Positions 7,602-62,530 of a stretch of DNA of 62,530 nt are shown in pieces. The notes beneath the pieces were generated by a model, which did no database searches, was not told where the DNA came from, and saw only the letters and a list, made by a program, of their open reading frames with translations. This stretch comes from Mycoplasmataceae bacterium. Its GTDB lineage: Bacteria > Bacillota_I > Bacilli_A > Mycoplasmatales > Mycoplasmoidaceae. The stretch covers positions 1 to 62,530 of the forward strand of contig JAISPD010000025.1 in the NCBI GenBank assembly GCA_031275175.1, written 5' to 3'. Positions within the stretch are counted from its first letter, which is position 1. Each line of letters opens with the position of its first letter. The position numbers and the translations under genes are program-made.

Positions 7602-8252
7602 ATGCAAAATATTTACAATATTAACAAACCTAAAGGATGAACATCAAATGATGTTGTTCAGAAAATTAAGCATCATTTTCATTACAAAAAAGTTGGCCAT
7701 GCTGGTACATTAGATCCTAATGCGGTTGGTGTTTTAGTCATCGGTTTCAATGAAGGAACTAAACTATTGTCTAAATTACAAACTGATGACAAAGAATACA
7801 TTGCTGAAATTCAAATTGGGGTTGAAACCAACACCTATGATATTTGTGGTAAATGTATCGCTAGAAAACCTACAAGTAACATCACTCTCCATCAAATAAT
7901 CGAAGAACTAACTAAATTAAAACAAGGTGATTATTGGCAAGTCCCTCCAGTTTATTCAGCTAAACGTATTCAAGGAAAACAACTGTATAAATTGGCATAC
8001 TCTCAACAACAAATACCAGTTATAAAACCACAATTGGTTCGTCTTTTTGACTTTCAAATCATTGAATTTCTTGATGATATTTTACAGGTAAGATTACATG
8101 TTTCCAAAGGATTTTATATTAGATCATTAGCTCACGATTTAGGAGTGCAGCTTGATACAGGAGCTAACCTTGTTAATTTAAAAAGAACTCGTAGCGGTGA
8201 ATTTACCATTGAAAATAGTATTAGTTTAGAACAATTATTTTCCGATAATTAA
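7602..8252 (+). CDS. truB: tRNA pseudouridine-55 synthase
   Basis: A 216-residue enzyme that makes pseudouridine 55 in the T-loop of tRNAs. It starts with NINKPKGWTSNDVV, has the catalytic motif GHAGTLDPNAVGVL with Asp at residue 38, and the motifs PPVYSAKRIQGKQLYKLA and YIRSLAHDLG. It is shorter than E. coli TruB (about 314) because the C-terminal PUA domain is missing, as in several Firmicutes. Upstream is a TAAAAT-like -10 rather than a ribosome-binding site. It ends 5 bp before ribF. Confidence 0.95.
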
Positions 8253-55913: not shown

Positions 55914-55921
55914 GTATGAGT

Positions 55922-56160
55922 ATGAAGCAAGTAAAAATTACTAAATACGATAAAGACCCTAAACATGTCGGCGACGAGATCGTTGTTGAAATTCAGCCAA
56001 CAAGTGGACCTAAAGTCCCCGCTTGATTTGCTCGAGCAATGCAAGAGGCCTTATAAAGCCAATTGTCGCTCACTTGGATGGGATTGATACTCGTTTAGAT
56101 AAACTTGAAACTCGCTTGGATGGGATTGAAGACGTACTCAAACGTAACAACTTGAAATAA
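55922..56160 (+). pseudogene. Frameshifted copy of the small coiled-coil protein
   Basis: The first 44 codons read MKQVKITKYDKDPKHVGDEI and later VPAWFARAMQEAL, then a stop; in the shifted frame the sequence continues KPIVAHLDGIDTRLDKLETR and ends VLKRNNLK. Together these align with the intact 104-residue protein encoded at 2433-2747 (W-F-A-x-A-x-Q-E-A-L and RLDGID repeats). The break at about 56053 looks like two extra bases (TA). A possible 23-codon frame (55841-55912) precedes it, ending in -DDSFKYEV; a similar short frame precedes the paralogue. Confidence 0.6.
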
Positions 56161-56161
56161 C

Positions 56162-56407
56162 TCACTTTTTCATAAAGAACAACACTTAGCCTTTGTACAA
56201 TGCGATGTACCTTATACTAACAATATGATTGAACGAGATTTTAGACATGTTAAAACAAAAATGAAAGTATCGGGTTCCTTCAGAGATTGAAACCATGTAG
56301 TAGCATTTAGTCTAATCTATAGTTTTTTTAAAACTTGTAATAAGCGACAAATTAATTTATGAATAGCTATTAATCAAGTTTGATTGAATCAATTTAGTTT
56401 TCATTAA
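56162..56407 (+). mobile_element. Remnant of an IS66-type transposase (C-terminus)
   Basis: About 81 codons of one frame, HKEQHLAFVQCDVPYTNNMI then ERDFRHVKTKMKVSGSFRDW, match the C-terminal DDE region of IS66-family transposases (V-P-x-T-N-N-x-x-E-R-D-x-R-x-x-K, K-x-S-G). The part upstream is missing, so the element is dead. It lies directly after the frameshifted coiled-protein copy and 235 bp before cas9, marking this as a site of past insertions. Confidence 0.65.
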
Positions 56408-56642
56408 TCTGTTGTTATATTCAGAACTTAAAAATAGATTAATTTAATATTTTTCATAAAAAAATGAAAATATTTTTAAAAAAAATAAAAACTTTTTGCT
56501 AAATACATTTAATTGTATACACTATCTTTTCGCAGTTAAAAGATTGATTTATCAGCATTTGTGTGTGTGGACGCAAAACTTTCTCGGTGAATAGTTACAG
56601 AAAAACGGGTTTATAAAACTAAAATAGAGTTAAAATTAAGCC
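56408..56642. other. Intergenic region upstream of cas9
   Basis: A very AT-rich gap with no gene. A TAAAAT at 56631-56636 ends 6 bp before the cas9 ATG, and TTATAAAACTAAAAT-like sequence precedes it. A palindromic run at about 56455-56475 (TTTTTCAT then ATGAAAA-type arms) can form a hairpin. Confidence 0.4.
56631..56636 (+). promoter_or_regulatory. -10 box of cas9
   Basis: TAAAAT ends 6 bp before the ATG at 56643. No ribosome-binding site lies between, so cas9 mRNA may be leaderless. Confidence 0.4.
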
Positions 56643-59600
56643 ATGGCAAAAATTAACATAGGTATAGATCTTGGGCCAACCTCTAATGCGATAGCAATTC
56701 TTGATGAAAAAATGAAATTGAAGCGTCCAATCATTATTCATCGTTTTAAAGATGCGTGTGATGCCAAAAGCGGATTACCAATTAATAAGTCACGACGTGA
56801 ATATCGCCATACTAGAAGAAGAGTTCAAAGAAGGAATAACAGGAGGAGAGATTTTTTAGAATTATTAATTCGCGAAAAGTTGATATCTACCGATACTGAT
56901 TTTTATCAGATGATTAACGCCGTTAATGCTATTCCGTATCAATTAAAACTTAACGGTTGTTTAGCGAAACTTTCTATCGGTGAATTGATTTTTTGTTTAT
57001 TCCATTACTTGAAACACAGAGGATTAACTTTTCATAAAGATAGTACTGAAGTTGAAAATCTTGTTTTGAATACCAAAGTTGATAAATTGCCAAGCCAAAT
57101 ACAAAAAGATAGTTATGAAAAACAAGGTTTTATTAAAGGCTCTGTAATAAATAACGCTTTTTCTCGTGATCAATGGAAGAAGGAAATTTTACTATTTCTT
57201 TCTAAACAAAATTTGACAAGTGATTTTAAGAAGCAATATATGCAAATTTTTGAAAGAAATCGTTCCTATGCATATGGACCAGGAAATAAATTTACTCAGA
57301 CAAAATATGGTTTATGCTTTGAAAATATAAATCAGGGTAAAAACGAAACGCTCTGAGATAAAAATATTGGTCACTGCATCATTTATCCCGAAGAAAAGCG
57401 TTCTTTAGCAAAATCAGCTTCTGCTGAGATGTCTAACATATTAACTAATTTGAATAACCTAAGAATAGACGGGATTGAGGAGTGAAGAATTTCTCCAGAA
57501 GAAAAAGAAAATATTCTTAAAGAGGTTATTTTAGACAATAAAAAACCTTCGTTATCATTAATTAGTAAGTTAATTTGGAATTTAAATTCACAATTTTCAG
57601 ACTATTTTTCAAATAGTAAAGATCTTAAAAATGCCTTAAATTTAAGGCAAATAAATGAGGAGTGTAAAAACATTAGAACATATTATAAAATTTTTAATCC
57701 TTGTGAATTTTTTCCGTGAAAAAACGTAAAACAATTAAATGTTATTAATGATTTAATATTTAATTTATCTAAAATACCAAACAAAAGTGAAAAAGAAGAA
57801 TTTTTGCAAAAACAAGGACATACCAGTGATGTCATTAAACAGCTTTTAGATGAAAAAAATGGAATAAGTTGTCAAGCGAGAACTGCAAAACTATCAATTA
57901 AAGCATTAAATGAATTTATACCGTTATTATTTAAGTCTTCGTCAGGAGAAATTTTATCAAATTTTGTTTTGAATAGAAAAATTTTACAAAAAGAAGATTA
58001 CTCTAATATGTCATTCAAGCAAGCGTTTTTGAAAAATGTTGCGAATGAAATTCTTTCACCAAGCGTCAAACGAAGCTGTTGGGAATTCATAAAAATATTG
58101 TCAAAATTAAAACTTGATAAAAATGTAGATACAAATATAGTTATTGAATTACCAAGAGCAACAAATTCAAAGGAACAACGAAAATTGGAAAGTGAGTTAC
58201 AAAAAATCAATAAAGAACGAAAAGAGAAAATTGAAAAAAAGTATAAAAAATATGAAATTAAAAATCAAAATTTTGACGAAGCAACAATATATCGATTAGC
58301 TTTGTTTGATAGTCAAGATGGGAAAGATATATACACAGGTAAACCATTAAAAATACAGGATGTTATAAATAATGTTAATATGCATATTGATCATATTTTG
58401 GCAAAATCCATAACCTGTGATAATACTTCTCATAATAAAGTCCTTACTACTTTAGACAATAATAAAAATAAAGGTATCATGACACCATATGAATTTTTAG
58501 GCACTAAATTTGAAAAGATAAAAAAACAATATTGGGATAATTTACTTAAAAATCACATGATAAGCCAGCAAAAATATTCTAATTTATCAAGAGTTACACC
58601 ATTAAATAAAGACGCACTTGGCTTTGTTGCGAGAAATATTACAGACACTGGTTACATTTCGTGTCTGTTATCAGAATTTTTACAAAAATTTTATGAAAAC
58701 ACTTCAATTAAAATAATCATTTCAAATGGTAAATTTACAAACTTTATTCGTTCTAAAATATTAAAGGTTAACAAGGATCGCAAATTTTATTCACACCACG
58801 GCGTTGATGCGGTTTGTTGTTCGATAGTTGGTATGCTCCCAAAAACAACTATAGATAAAATGCGTTGATCTGTTCAACACCCTGGAGTAATAGAAGAAGA
58901 CGGCAGTTTAATTAACCATGGGACGGGTGAAATCATTTTTAATTATAATGATTTACGAAAAATTGTTGGTCAGGCACACATAAAAGAAACTTTGCATGAA
59001 AGTGATTCCTTTAGATATTCAACTCCTTTAATAAAGCACCCCACAAAAGCATTACATGCAGACACTTTATATTCAGGTAAAATAAATGAGAAAAATGGCA
59101 CTGTTGAAGTAATAAGTAAAATTCATATTTTTAAAGATTATGGTAAAGAACATAAAAAATTGTTCGATAAATGGTTTTTGAAAAAAGAATTTTCAGAACT
59201 TCGTATAGACAACAAAATAATGTTAAATATATTAATCAAAATTTATGAACAATATTCTAGCGAAAAACAAGGCAATGTGAATCCGTTTATCTCATATATG
59301 AGTGACATATACAAAATAAATAATCCGGACTATGTTTACATTCCGCTAAACAATGAAAAAGTTATTAGAATTAAATTTTTGCGCTATGTAGTAAATGGTA
59401 AAAAACTTCTTTGGAAAACTTTAAAAAACGAGAAACTTGCTCACTCAAGAAAAAACAGAATAGGAATGTTCGATAATTTGGAATGGACGCAGATGCGTGT
59501 GTACTCTTTGAATGGCAAATATTGGGTTTTTCCAATCAATGCTTTGGTAAATAAAATTGACCATGGAAAAATTACAGTTGACGAGAATAAAGTAGATTCG

Positions 59601-59855
59601 CTATTAAAAGAAATTACAAAGCAGGATTGCAAATTAAAATTAATAGATACATGATATAAAGGAGAAAAATTCATAGACAAAGATAAAGAAATTTATGAAC
59701 TATCATCTTATCATTTTAATTTTAAAAGTATACAATTAAAAAGTATTGTAAAAAAAGAAGATAAACCCCAACAATATTATTCTTTATCTAAGATCTTTAT
59801 TGAAAATAAATATAAAAAAGTTCATATTGACATTTTAGGAAATATATATGTATAA
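56643..59855 (+). CDS. cas9: Type II-A CRISPR-associated nuclease Cas9, compact
   Basis: A 1070-residue RNA-guided DNA nuclease. RuvC-I is NIGIDLGPTSNAIAI (Asp9); an arginine-rich bridge helix (RREYRHTRRRVQRRNNRRR) follows at about 50-70; a reduced recognition lobe spans about 75-490; RuvC-II is NIVIELPR (Glu502); the HNH domain has MHIDHILAKS (His584) and NKVLTTLDNNKNKG (Asn607); RuvC-III is SHHGVDAVCCSIV (His719, Asp722); the rest is the PAM-interacting region. All catalytic residues that I expect from SpCas9 (D10, E762, H840, N863, H983, D986) have counterparts. Length is near that of small Cas9s such as the Staphylococcus aureus enzyme (1053). Unusual: GPTSNAIAI in RuvC-I where GTNSVGWA is common. 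Many TGA Trp codons. Confidence 0.96.
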
Positions 59856-59860
59856 TAAAT

Positions 59861-59960
59861 TGTCTTGAATCTTTGAATTTAAGACAGTCTATACAAAGAT
59901 TATACTAATCCACAATTAGGCTTTATGCCTTAAGCATGTACCCATGAGGTACATTTTTAT
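59861..59960 (+). ncRNA. tracrRNA
   Basis: An anti-repeat at 59886-59911 is complementary to 26 bases of the CRISPR repeat with one G-U-type change, so it can pair with crRNA. Ahead of it TGTCTT (59861-59866) and AAGACA (59881-59886) can form a 6-bp 5' hairpin. After the anti-repeat come a nexus-like stem AGGC/GCCT (59918-59930) and a terminator hairpin (59936-59954). TATAAT at 59851-59856, overlapping the cas9 stop, is a likely -10. Placement between cas9 and cas1, on the same strand, is a known type II arrangement. The exact ends are inferred. Confidence 0.85.
59936..59960 (+). terminator. Rho-independent terminator of tracrRNA
   Basis: ATGTACC (59936-59942) and GGTACAT (59948-59954) form a perfect 7-bp stem around a 5-base loop, followed by TTTT, A, T. 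The cas1 -10 box lies 3 bp further on. Confidence 0.8.
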
Positions 59961-59962
59961 TT

Positions 59963-59968
59963 TATAAT
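59963..59968 (+). promoter_or_regulatory. -10 box of cas1-cas2-csn2
   Basis: TATAAT ends 6 bp before the cas1 GTG at 59975. Transcription would start at or next to the start codon, so cas1 is probably translated without a leader. Confidence 0.5.
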
Positions 59969-59974
59969 CTAAGA

Positions 59975-60856
59975 GTGGGTTGAAAAATTATTGAAATAGA
60001 AACAGCAGAGCGTTTGAAACTTTTTATAGGTAATTTACTGATTTTTAAAAATGACCAAAAATACACCATTCCTTTGAATGACATTGATGTTTTGCTATTA
60101 GATAATTTGTACGTTACATTATCACAACAATTAATAGCAGAATTATCACTCCGAAATATATTGGTAATATGTTGTGATAAGAAACACGTTCCGTGCGCAC
60201 TTATATTACCAATTTCTGGTAACTATAATTCTTTAAAAATTTTACAAAAGCAATTTAAATGAACAGAAGCACAAAAAGGCGAATATTGACAAAAAAATAT
60301 TAGCTTAAAAATATTTCAGCAAGCTACATTGCTAAAATATTTTCAATTTACGAATGAAAGTAAAATACTAATTAGTTATGCAAATGAAGTTCTATTTTAT
60401 GATAAATCAAACAGAGAAGGACACGCATCAAAATTATATTGATCTACATTATTTGGAAATAAATTTAGTAGAGATGATGAATTAAACCCTATAAATCATT
60501 TATTAAATTTTGGATATGCTATTTTGTTATCATATGTTGCTAAATCGTGTGTTAAATTTGGTTTAGACATGCGAGTTGCTGTTTTTCATAAATCGTTTTC
60601 TAATCATTTTGCATTAGCAACAGATTTGATGGAAATTTTTAGAACAATTGTTGACTGTTGCATTTATAAAATAATTAATAAAAGCAATATTAAAATGCTT
60701 TCGCCAGATATCAAACGCAATCTGATTGAATTATTTACAAAACAAGTTAATATTGATGCTCAAAAAGTTTATATTTCAAGAGCAATAGATCTTTATGTAA
60801 CAAATTTTCTTCTATTTAAAATTTTAATCATTCAATGTAATTATGATGAATACTAA
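59975..60856 (+). CDS. cas1: CRISPR integrase Cas1 (type II)
   Basis: A 293-residue integrase that inserts new spacers. The start GTG at 59975 restores the type II N-terminus M-G-W (VGWKIIEIETAERLK). Active-site residues match Streptococcus pyogenes Cas1 positions: Glu148 in NREGHASKLYW, His205 in VFHKSFSNHFALATDL, and Glu220 in ATDLMEIFR. Several TGA Trp codons. It follows the tracrRNA terminator and overlaps cas2 by 11 bp or more. Confidence 0.94.
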
Positions 60857-61169
60857 AATTATGAGAATGATATTATTTTTTGATTTGCCAGCTGAAACTG
60901 TTTCTGATAAAAAAGCATATGCTATTTTTCACAAAGAATTGATTAAACATGGATGAATAATGTTACAATTTTCTGTCTATTGTAAAATAATAAATTTTCA
61001 AACTAAGATGGTGAGTGAAATTCAAAAACTTCAAGGAGCAATACCGAAATATGGTAATATACGCATATTAAATGTTACCGAACATCAATATCAAAATATA
61101 AAAATAATTTTGGGAGAGAAATCTCTAAACGAAGATATTAATTCAGCAAAAAGGTATGTGATTATTTAA
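60846..61169 (+). CDS. cas2: CRISPR integration partner Cas2
   Basis: A 107-residue protein that bridges Cas1 dimers. It starts MNTKIMRMILFFDLPAETVS (type II-A Cas2 begins M-x-Y-R-Y-M-R-x-I-L-x-F-D-(M/L)-P) and contains HGWIMLQFSVYCKI, where many have S-E-G-F-x-M-x-Q-x-S-V-Y. ATG 60846 is preferred over ATG 60843 on this pattern. Overlaps cas1 by 11 bp, and csn2 begins 2 bp after its stop. Confidence 0.92.
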
Positions 61170-61171
61170 AT

Positions 61172-61867
61172 ATGGATATTCTTAATTTTCGCAACCAAAA
61201 ATTTCCGTTTAATTATGATGGTTTTAAAATAATTAAATGTAATGATATGTTTTCGTTTTATAAAATGCTATTAAATAACGAAATAAGCATCGTATTAAAC
61301 GGAATTAAAATTGAATTAAATAAAACTTTATTAATTAATCCAATTTCAAAAGTTTCAAATTATCTTTCTTTCAATTCTTCAAACATTTTATCTAGATGAA
61401 CTAATAAATTAATTGATGAAAATCAAGATATTATAGATACAGAAAAAATAACAAATTTTTTATCAAAAAATTTTGAATCAATTTTATCCGCAAAATTAGT
61501 AGATTTGGAATTTTTGATAAATAAAATAATTTTTTCTTCCATTTCTATAAATAAAGAAAAATTTATGACCAACAAGGATTTTAATTTTATTTTAGATGAA
61601 ACATTAAAACAGAACAAAGATTTGGTATTGATTATTTTTGATGATGACTGATTAGATTTTTCTATTGTTAAAAAACTTATTAATAAAGTGAAAACTTTCT
61701 TAATTATATCTGATATTAGTAAATGAAGTGAAATGTTTTCGAAGAAATACAATGAAGTATGACTTATTCAAAAAGAAAATGCTTTTCATGAAGTGGTTCA
61801 AAACGAAGACTATTTTGTTAAGAGAGATGAAACTGATCCACTAGAAAAGATAGTGCAAAAATTTTAG
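61172..61867 (+). CDS. csn2: Csn2 family protein (type II-A adaptation)
   Basis: A 231-residue protein, called Csn2 from its place after cas2, its length, and its start MDILNFRNQKFPFNYDGFKI, which resembles Csn2 of other type II-A loci. Csn2 forms tetrameric rings that bind DNA ends during spacer acquisition. The C-terminal part has LVLIIFDDDWLDFSIVKKL, matching the Walker-B-like region of Csn2. Trp codons are TGA. The stop codon at 61865-61867 lies 8 bp before the first CRISPR repeat, so the array leader must lie inside this gene. Confidence 0.82.
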
Positions 61868-61868
61868 C

Positions 61869-61875
61869 ATTTGAG
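61869..61875 (+). promoter_or_regulatory. Leader-anchoring sequence of the CRISPR array
   Basis: ATTTGAG directly precedes the first repeat. This heptamer is the known leader-anchoring sequence of type II-A arrays, where Cas1-Cas2 integrates new spacers. Its presence sets the direction of growth: new spacers enter between 61875 and 61876. Confidence 0.75.
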
Positions 61876-62307
61876 GTTTTGGACTAGTATAATCTTTGTA
61901 TAGACTAAAACAACTTCAATCACCAACACCACAAGAATTATGTTTTGGACTAGTATAATCTTTGTATAGACTAAAACACTTCTGCACCTTCATATAACTC
62001 AACTTCTGTTTTGGACTAGTATAATCTTTGTATAGACTAAAACGGATTTTTAATTCCGCTCTTTTTAAAATTTGTTTTGGACTAGTATAATCTTTGTATA
62101 GACTAAAACATTTGGACTTTCATTACGCCACTACTGTCAGTTTTGGACTAGTATAATCTTTGTATAGACTAAAACAACTGGTATAGATGTATCAATTACT
62201 GCCGAGTTTTGGACTAGTATAATCTTTGTATAGACTAAAACTAAATAAGATTCCTGGAGAGTTACCAATTGGTTTTGGACTAGTATAATCTTTGTATAGA
62301 CTAAAAC
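61876..62307 (+). CRISPR. CRISPR array, 7 repeats and 6 spacers
   Basis: Seven identical 36-bp repeats start at 61876, 61942, 62008, 62074, 62140, 62206 and 62272; each begins GTTTTGGACTAG and ends AGACTAAAAC. The six spacers are all 30 bp. The 5' half pairs with the tracrRNA anti-repeat at 59886-59911. All repeats are perfect, including the last, and no degenerate terminal repeat is seen, suggesting the distal end was cut off by the neighbouring insertion sequence. TATAAT lies at repeat positions 13-18, so each repeat may promote transcription of its own spacer. Confidence 0.98.
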
Positions 62308-62336
62308 ATAAAGAAAGCCCGAAGTTAACTCTAAAG

Positions 62337-62530
62337 TTAGCAATTAACTTGAACCCACTTATTATACACTTCGTTGGCCGATAAATAGTTTAATGAGCCA
62401 CGATAAATATTGTTAACTCAATCTACAGCCTCTTGAATTTCTCAATCATTAATTTCATCGAAGTTTGTTCCTTTTGGAAACTTTCGTCTAATTAAACTAT
62501 TAAAGTTTTCTACCCCACCTTTTTCTCACG
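62337..62530 (-). mobile_element. IS30-family transposase, C-terminus (partial)
   Basis: The minus-strand frame continues beyond the window. It ends REKGGVENFNSLIRRKFPKG, then TNFDEINDWEIQEAVDW, NNIYRGSLNYLSANEVYNKW and a stop at 62337-62339. G-(S/G)-V-E-N-x-N-x-L-I-R-R-x-F-P-K-G-T is the conserved C-terminal signature of IS30 transposases (with the catalytic Glu in the V-E-N segment), and the last part is the usual R-x-x-L-N-Y motif. The element abuts the CRISPR array, 29 bp after the last repeat. Confidence 0.85.

What the first reader, a model, noticed from the sequence alone, without database searches (positions are those of the whole stretch)
56643..62307. Complete compact type II-A CRISPR-Cas9 locus in a mollicute
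cas9 (1070 residues), tracrRNA, cas1, cas2, csn2 and a seven-repeat array lie in one block on the plus strand, all reading TGA as Trp. All RuvC and HNH catalytic residues are kept, and Cas1 active-site positions line up with SpCas1. The Cas9 is about 300 residues shorter than SpCas9 with most of the loss in the recognition lobe, and its RuvC-I reads GPTSNAIAI rather than the common GTNSVGWA. A small Cas9 of this kind could have an uncharacterised PAM.
Basis: partly seen in the sequence, partly recalled or inferred. Interest (0 to 1): 0.75.

Follow-up and report, generated by a model that had tools for sequence, protein, structure and literature searches.

The report
Mycoplasma-type II-A CRISPR-Cas9 locus
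This is an intact-looking set of genes for an ordinary kind of bacterial CRISPR-Cas9 immune system in an uncultured mycoplasma relative; only the Cas9 protein, from a divergent and untested branch, is at all unusual.

Summary
On the plus strand lie cas9 (56643-59855, 1070 aa, TGA=Trp), a tracrRNA (~59862-59959), cas1 (start GTG 59975), cas2, csn2, the canonical II-A leader end ATTTGAG, and seven identical 36-nt repeats with 30-nt spacers. All RuvC, HNH and Cas1 catalytic residues are kept. The AlphaFold model aligns end to end with SaCas9 and St1Cas9, and Csn2 is confirmed by profile and fold. It is a type II-A system of the mycoplasma branch. The 1070-aa size is normal for the SaCas9/St1Cas9 group: its REC lobe (about 373 aa) is no shorter than SaCas9's (352). 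Two things were missed. First, the array is not complete: the window contig ends in an insertion sequence 10 nt after repeat 7, and six more repeats with the same IS lie on another contig. Second, the GPTS RuvC-I motif marks a long-branched Cas9 clade (100/100 support) found so far only in this genus: five genomes, one a 62-aa remnant. Closest full-length relatives are 28-34% identical. No protospacer was found in the genome, 95 family genomes, phages, plasmids or IMG/VR, so the PAM is unknown. Verdict: a new member of a known kind.

The parts
56643..59855 (+). cas9, 1070 aa (table 4). D9, E502, H719, D722 = RuvC; D583, H584, N607 = HNH
59827..59856 (+). predicted tracrRNA promoter TTGACA-18-TATAAT, 12 of 12, inside the 3' end of cas9
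   Evidence: 0.01 expected by chance in the region
59862..59959 (+). predicted tracrRNA (~98 nt): 9-bp 5' hairpin, anti-repeat 59886-59915, nexus hairpin 59918-59930, terminator 59931-59959
59975..60856 (+). cas1, GTG start (293 aa); frame open from ATG 59936, but that start would lie in the tracrRNA terminator
60843..61169 (+). cas2, 108 aa, overlaps cas1 by 14 bp
61172..61867 (+). csn2, 231 aa (short form)
61869..61875 (+). ATTTGAG leader end next to repeat 1 (group 1 II-A leader-anchoring motif)
61876..62307 (+). CRISPR array, leader-proximal part: 7 identical 36-nt repeats, 6 spacers of 30 nt
62308..62317 (+). first 10 nt of spacer 7, cut off by the IS
62318..62530 (.). left end of a multicopy insertion sequence (CCCGAAGTTAACTC...) that breaks the array and the contig; transposase C-terminus on the minus strand (62337-62528)

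Best explanation
A type II-A CRISPR-Cas adaptive immune system of the mycoplasma branch. Inferred from homology: Cas1-Cas2, with Csn2 and Cas9, insert ~30-nt pieces of invading DNA next to the ATTTGAG leader. The array is transcribed and pairs with the tracrRNA, and the duplex is cut by a host RNase III. Cas9 (SaCas9/St1Cas9 architecture) then cuts matching DNA that carries a 3' PAM of unknown sequence. Shown here by computation: gene content, order and frames; catalytic residues; fold; repeat:anti-repeat pairing; tracrRNA promoter and terminator signals; leader motif; the phylogenetic position of Cas9 and Cas1. Not shown: expression, cleavage, PAM, acquisition. The array has been split by an insertion sequence, so the distal spacers may no longer be transcribed from the leader.
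For: Cas9 408 bits to TIGR01865. Catalytic residues invariant or nearly so across 48 homologues and aligned with SaCas9. AlphaFold model pLDDT 78 aligns 910-930 residues with SaCas9/St1Cas9, Z 24-26. Cas1 aligns with S. pyogenes Cas1 4zkj, E/H/E kept. Csn2 homologues in 7 of 7 loci match PADLOC Csn2, and the 14 best structure matches are all Csn2. Repeat:anti-repeat duplex, nexus and terminator. ATTTGAG leader end (PMC5382924). Repeat positions 12-18 read GTATAAT, one base from the GTACAAT conserved in mycoplasma repeats (PMC6882279). Trees place Cas9 and Cas1 in the mycoplasma branch with 100/100 support.
Against: No spacer matches any sequence searched, so immunity is not directly supported. 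The array is interrupted, and an IS-ridden draft genome (33 contigs, 86% complete) leaves its true state unknown. Seven perfectly identical repeats and intact frames argue against decay, but do not prove activity. One relative in the genus (G587) keeps only a 62-aa cas9 remnant, so loss does occur.
Confidence: 0.93

Rival explanations
1. A relic: the genes are intact by chance or recent loss of use, and the system no longer adapts or interferes, as suggested by the IS in the array.
For: IS end 10 nt after repeat 7 with no matching target duplication on C9; decayed cas9 in G587; no protospacers.
Against: All four frames open with catalytic residues kept; repeats 1-7 and 8-12 identical; leader, promoter and tracrRNA intact.
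Confidence: 0.12
2. A type II-C or otherwise new subtype in which the fourth gene is not Csn2.
For: Csn2 has no Pfam or NCBIfam match, and 1070 aa is also a common II-C Cas9 size.
Against: PADLOC Csn2 hits in all 7 homologues; the 14 best Foldseek hits are Csn2; II-A leader motif; Cas9 tree with SaCas9/St1Cas9 and away from the four rows used as outgroup.
Confidence: 0.02
3. The GPTS Cas9 clade is functionally distinct (altered RuvC-I handling, guide or PAM requirement) rather than merely fast-evolving.
For: Five genomes share GPTS; those with enough sequence also lack the usual G-x-R-L-F strand and read HHG[VI]DA instead of HHAxDA, and this Cas9 lacks the near-universal G16; long stem branch.
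Against: All catalytic residues kept and the fold unchanged; long branches fit relaxed or fast evolution equally well.
Confidence: 0.15

Closest known systems
Mycoplasma type II-A CRISPR-Cas9 systems (Ipoutcha et al. 2019, PMC6882279); functional example M. gallisepticum MgCas9 (PMC11893278)
   Same: Gene order cas9-tracrRNA-cas1-cas2-csn2-array, 36-nt repeat with GTA(C/T)AAT at positions 12-18, SaCas9-like domain plan, csn2 present, TGA=Trp
   Different: Cas9 only 28-34% identical to any full-length relative found; RuvC-I GPTS; at the bottom of the mollicute size range; PAM unknown; array broken by an IS
SaCas9 (Staphylococcus aureus) and St1Cas9 (S. thermophilus CRISPR1)
   Same: End-to-end fold, catalytic residues, Y789 equivalent (Y810), size class, ATTTGAG leader of CRISPR1
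   Different: About 25% identity; SaCas9 PAM-contacting residues N985, N986, R991 and R1015 not kept in the alignment; PI about 124 aa against 144 and 159
GPTS Cas9 of the same genus: G585 (L051), G614 (L057), G589 (L130, cut off by contig end), G587 (L138, remnant)
   Same: GPTS RuvC-I, lost G-x-R-L-F segment, HHG[VI]DA in RuvC-III where that part is present, 100/100 clade for the full-length ones
   Different: 27-28% identity to the full-length ones; in G585 cas9 is divergent from cas1-cas2-csn2 and in G614 convergent with it, whereas here all are co-directional

Membership tests
Type II-A CRISPR-Cas | Cas9 with RuvC and HNH nuclease residues | tested here: met
   D9, E502, H719, D722; D583, H584, N607
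Type II-A CRISPR-Cas | cas1 and cas2 of type II | tested here: met
   TIGR03639 298 bits; Cas2_II E 8e-38; Cas1 E/H/E aligned to 4zkj
Type II-A CRISPR-Cas | csn2 | tested here: met
   PADLOC Csn2 E 2e-6, all 7 homologues match, 14 best structural hits are Csn2 (model pLDDT 61)
Type II-A CRISPR-Cas | tracrRNA with anti-repeat and terminator | tested here: met
   (prediction, no RNA data)
Type II-A CRISPR-Cas | 36-nt repeat array next to a II-A leader end | tested here: met
   ATTTGAG/GTTT
Type II-A CRISPR-Cas | RNA-guided DNA interference and spacer acquisition | not testable with these tools
   needs expression; no protospacer found
Mycoplasma Cas9 branch | Phylogenetic position with other mycoplasma Cas9 | tested here: met
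   100/100, sister to the f2 group (Spiroplasma by inference); Cas1 likewise 100/100
Mycoplasma Cas9 branch | GTACAAT at repeat positions 12-18 (PMC6882279) | tested here: inconclusive
   GTATAAT here, six of seven bases, with AUUAUAC in the anti-repeat
Cas9 clade with known PAM | PAM-contacting residues shared with a characterised Cas9 (SaCas9) | tested here: not met
   SaCas9 N985, N986, R991, R1015 not kept; the alignment of this part is uncertain

The most novel reading that the evidence does not exclude
The GPTS clade is a so far unstudied Cas9 lineage of one uncultured mycoplasma genus, with a PAM and perhaps a guide-scaffold preference unlike any characterised Cas9, in a protein of only 1070 aa.
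Probability: 0.45. Interest if true: 0.45.

Novelty: new member of a known kind. Interest (0 to 1): 0.3.

Why it matters
It adds a divergent, compact Cas9 with a clearly readable guide scaffold to a size class useful for delivery in vectors, and extends II-A systems in an uncultured mycoplasma genus where cas9 varies strongly in sequence, orientation and intactness. The biology itself is well known.

Tried and rejected
PAM inference from protospacers: 11 complete spacers (S1-S6, S8-S12) against own genome and 95 family genomes, phages and plasmids; 21-24-nt parts of six of those spacers plus the C9 spacer next to the IS exactly against IMG/VR (45-48, 50-52). Nothing beyond chance. PAM inference from SaCas9 contacts failed: residues not kept, and the alignment is weak there. 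Simple single IS insertion joining C14 and C9 was rejected: three other IS copies show 15-17-bp target duplications, this pair shows none. Type II-C was rejected. The search for related loci with the Cas9 alone found no relative in genome contigs; the alignment of 17 gave no usable pattern there and found one distant viral contig. Rfam found nothing in the window, as expected for a diverged tracrRNA (4). Solved-structure sequence search with the Csn2 profile gave only chance hits.

Full report
WHAT WAS CHECKED. The window is a whole contig (C14, 62,530 bases) of an 833-kb, 33-contig, 86%-complete draft genome. In NCBI table 4 the finding's genes are all open on the plus strand: cas9 56643-59855 (1070 aa), cas1, cas2 60843-61169 and csn2 61172-61867. 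Seven identical 36-nt repeats lie at 61876-62307, spaced exactly 66 nt. The cas1 frame is open from ATG 59936, but homologues in the genus start MG[YF]KI, which fits GTG 59975. That start also leaves the tracrRNA terminator (59936-59954) outside cas1.

FAMILY IDENTITY. Cas9 scores 408 bits with TIGR01865, Cas1 298 bits with TIGR03639 (type II), Cas2 70 bits. Csn2 has no Pfam or NCBIfam match and only E 2e-6 in PADLOC. It was therefore tested further: all seven Csn2 homologues from related loci match PADLOC Csn2 models, best E 1.6e-30, and the 14 best structural matches of its (moderate, pLDDT 61) model are all Csn2. Cas1 aligns along its length with S. pyogenes Cas1 4zkj, with the E of NREGHA, the H of VFHKS and the E of DLME in register.

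CAS9. D9, E502, H719 and D722 (RuvC) and D583, H584 and N607 (HNH) fall on SaCas9 D10, E477, H701, D704, D556, H557 and N580. D9, E502, H584, N607, H719 and D722 are invariant in 48 homologues and D583 is nearly so. An AlphaFold2 model from those 48 sequences (mean pLDDT 78) matches SaCas9 and St1Cas9 from end to end: 910-930 residues, Z 24-26, 24-26% identity. Domain lengths by alignment are REC 373 (SaCas9 352, St1Cas9 386), WED 138 and PI 124 (SaCas9 144, St1Cas9 159). So the REC lobe is not unusually small; the comparison with SpCas9 misleads. Boundaries are approximate because identity is low, and the SaCas9 domain limits and the two reference sequences were written from memory (SaCas9 agrees with the PDB alignment where I compared them by eye).

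PHYLOGENY. With 59 Cas9 sequences the query falls in a mollicute group next to the SaCas9/St1Cas9 group and apart from the four rows used as outgroup. In a careful 27-row tree it forms a 100/100 clade with two proteins of the same genus, L051 (genome G585) and L057 (G614), inside the mycoplasma branch. All three share GPTS in RuvC-I, lack the usual G-x-R-L-F strand and read HHG[VI]DA in RuvC-III. Two more genomes of the genus have GPTS: G589 (L130, 884 aa, cut by the contig end) and G587 (L138, a 62-aa remnant ending in a stop). The branches are long (query 1.38), so long-branch attraction cannot be fully excluded; the shared motifs argue against it. Cas1 is in the same mycoplasma branch (100/100) but without a resolved sister. 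Full-length Cas9 relatives are at best 32-34% identical, whereas Cas1 reaches about 50%: Cas9 is the fast-evolving part.

GUIDE RNA AND LEADER. A perfect TTGACA-18-TATAAT lies at 59827-59856; 0.01 such matches are expected in this region by chance. Downstream follow a 9-bp hairpin, the anti-repeat, a GGCUUUAUGCC nexus and a terminator. Repeat plus tracrRNA folds 9-11 standard deviations better than shuffles, partly by construction since the anti-repeat complements the repeat. ATTTGAG sits directly before repeat 1 (chance at one given site about 2e-4); it is the group 1 II-A leader end (PMC5382924). Relatives read TTTGAC or TTGAC there. Repeat positions 12-18 read GTATAAT, one base from the GTACAAT reported for mycoplasma repeats (PMC6882279).

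THE ARRAY IS INTERRUPTED. The same repeat occurs five more times on contig C9, plus one terminal repeat with one changed base. Ten nt after repeat 7 the window enters an element whose left end recurs at the ends of contigs C1, C28 and C30. Its right end is on C9, 34 nt before repeat 8, these 34 nt being AAAC (the end of a repeat) plus one whole 30-nt spacer, and on six other contigs. Three copies can be paired by 15-17-bp target duplications; C14 and C9 share none. So the array holds at least 13 whole repeats and 12 whole spacers and has been broken by one IS with a later deletion, or by two IS copies. That both contigs belong to one array is itself inference, resting on the identical repeat, the leader on one and the altered terminal repeat on the other, and the IS ends. 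That the element is of the IS30 kind is inference from its ends, its long target duplications and its transposase fragments; no family model matched the fragment.

SPACERS AND PAM. No spacer has a match beyond chance in its own genome outside the arrays, in 95 genomes of the family, in phages or plasmids, or, for seven spacers, exactly in IMG/VR. There is thus no self-targeting seen and no PAM information. PAM-contact residues of SaCas9 are not kept. In M. gallisepticum the PAM differs even between strains 96% identical in Cas9 (PMC11893278), so it cannot be carried over from relatives.

HOST. A gut-symbiont host is likely but inferred. The locus lies about 1 kb downstream of dnaA-dnaN, hence probably near oriC; dnaA and dnaN were named from their sequences, not tested.

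VERDICT. A real type II-A system of a known kind, with a Cas9 from an unstudied genus-level clade. Function and PAM are untested.

Noticed in passing
L064:8254-8619 (contig C9, minus strand): The distal part of the same array, six repeats with a one-base-changed terminal repeat, next to the same IS. Followed by sequence, not closed.
   Followed up: partly
window 56105-56407 and 56583-56597: Weak transposase remnant (PF13610, E 4e-5, below cut-off) and a CTCGGTGAATAGTTA element end just upstream of cas9; the same end recurs in L064 and L073. The CRISPR locus is flanked by mobile elements on both sides.
   Followed up: partly
window 55916-56160; L064 about 7800-8110; L138:3549-4221; L140:3450-3871: A recurring small ORF family in this genus, with a start like KQVKITKYDKDPKHVG and an end in heptads like RLDKLETRLD, often near CRISPR or IS sequence. 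Function unknown.
   Followed up: no
L139:3-1748 and L141:6438-6936: The same genus also holds a longer-looking, differently built Cas9 (G594, cut off by contig end) and an array with a palindromic repeat GTTTGAGAGTGTCCTATTATAGCAACACTCTCAAAC (G599): apparently several different type II systems in one genus.
   Followed up: no
L127, L128, L129: In three genomes of the genus cas9 is on the opposite strand to cas1-cas2-csn2 (divergent in G585, convergent in G583 and G614), so the locus has been rearranged repeatedly.
   Followed up: partly
L138:4555-4743: cas9 of G587 reduced to a 62-aa N-terminal remnant, 49% identical to this Cas9 over residues 3-50: the system seems to have been lost there.
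   Followed up: yes
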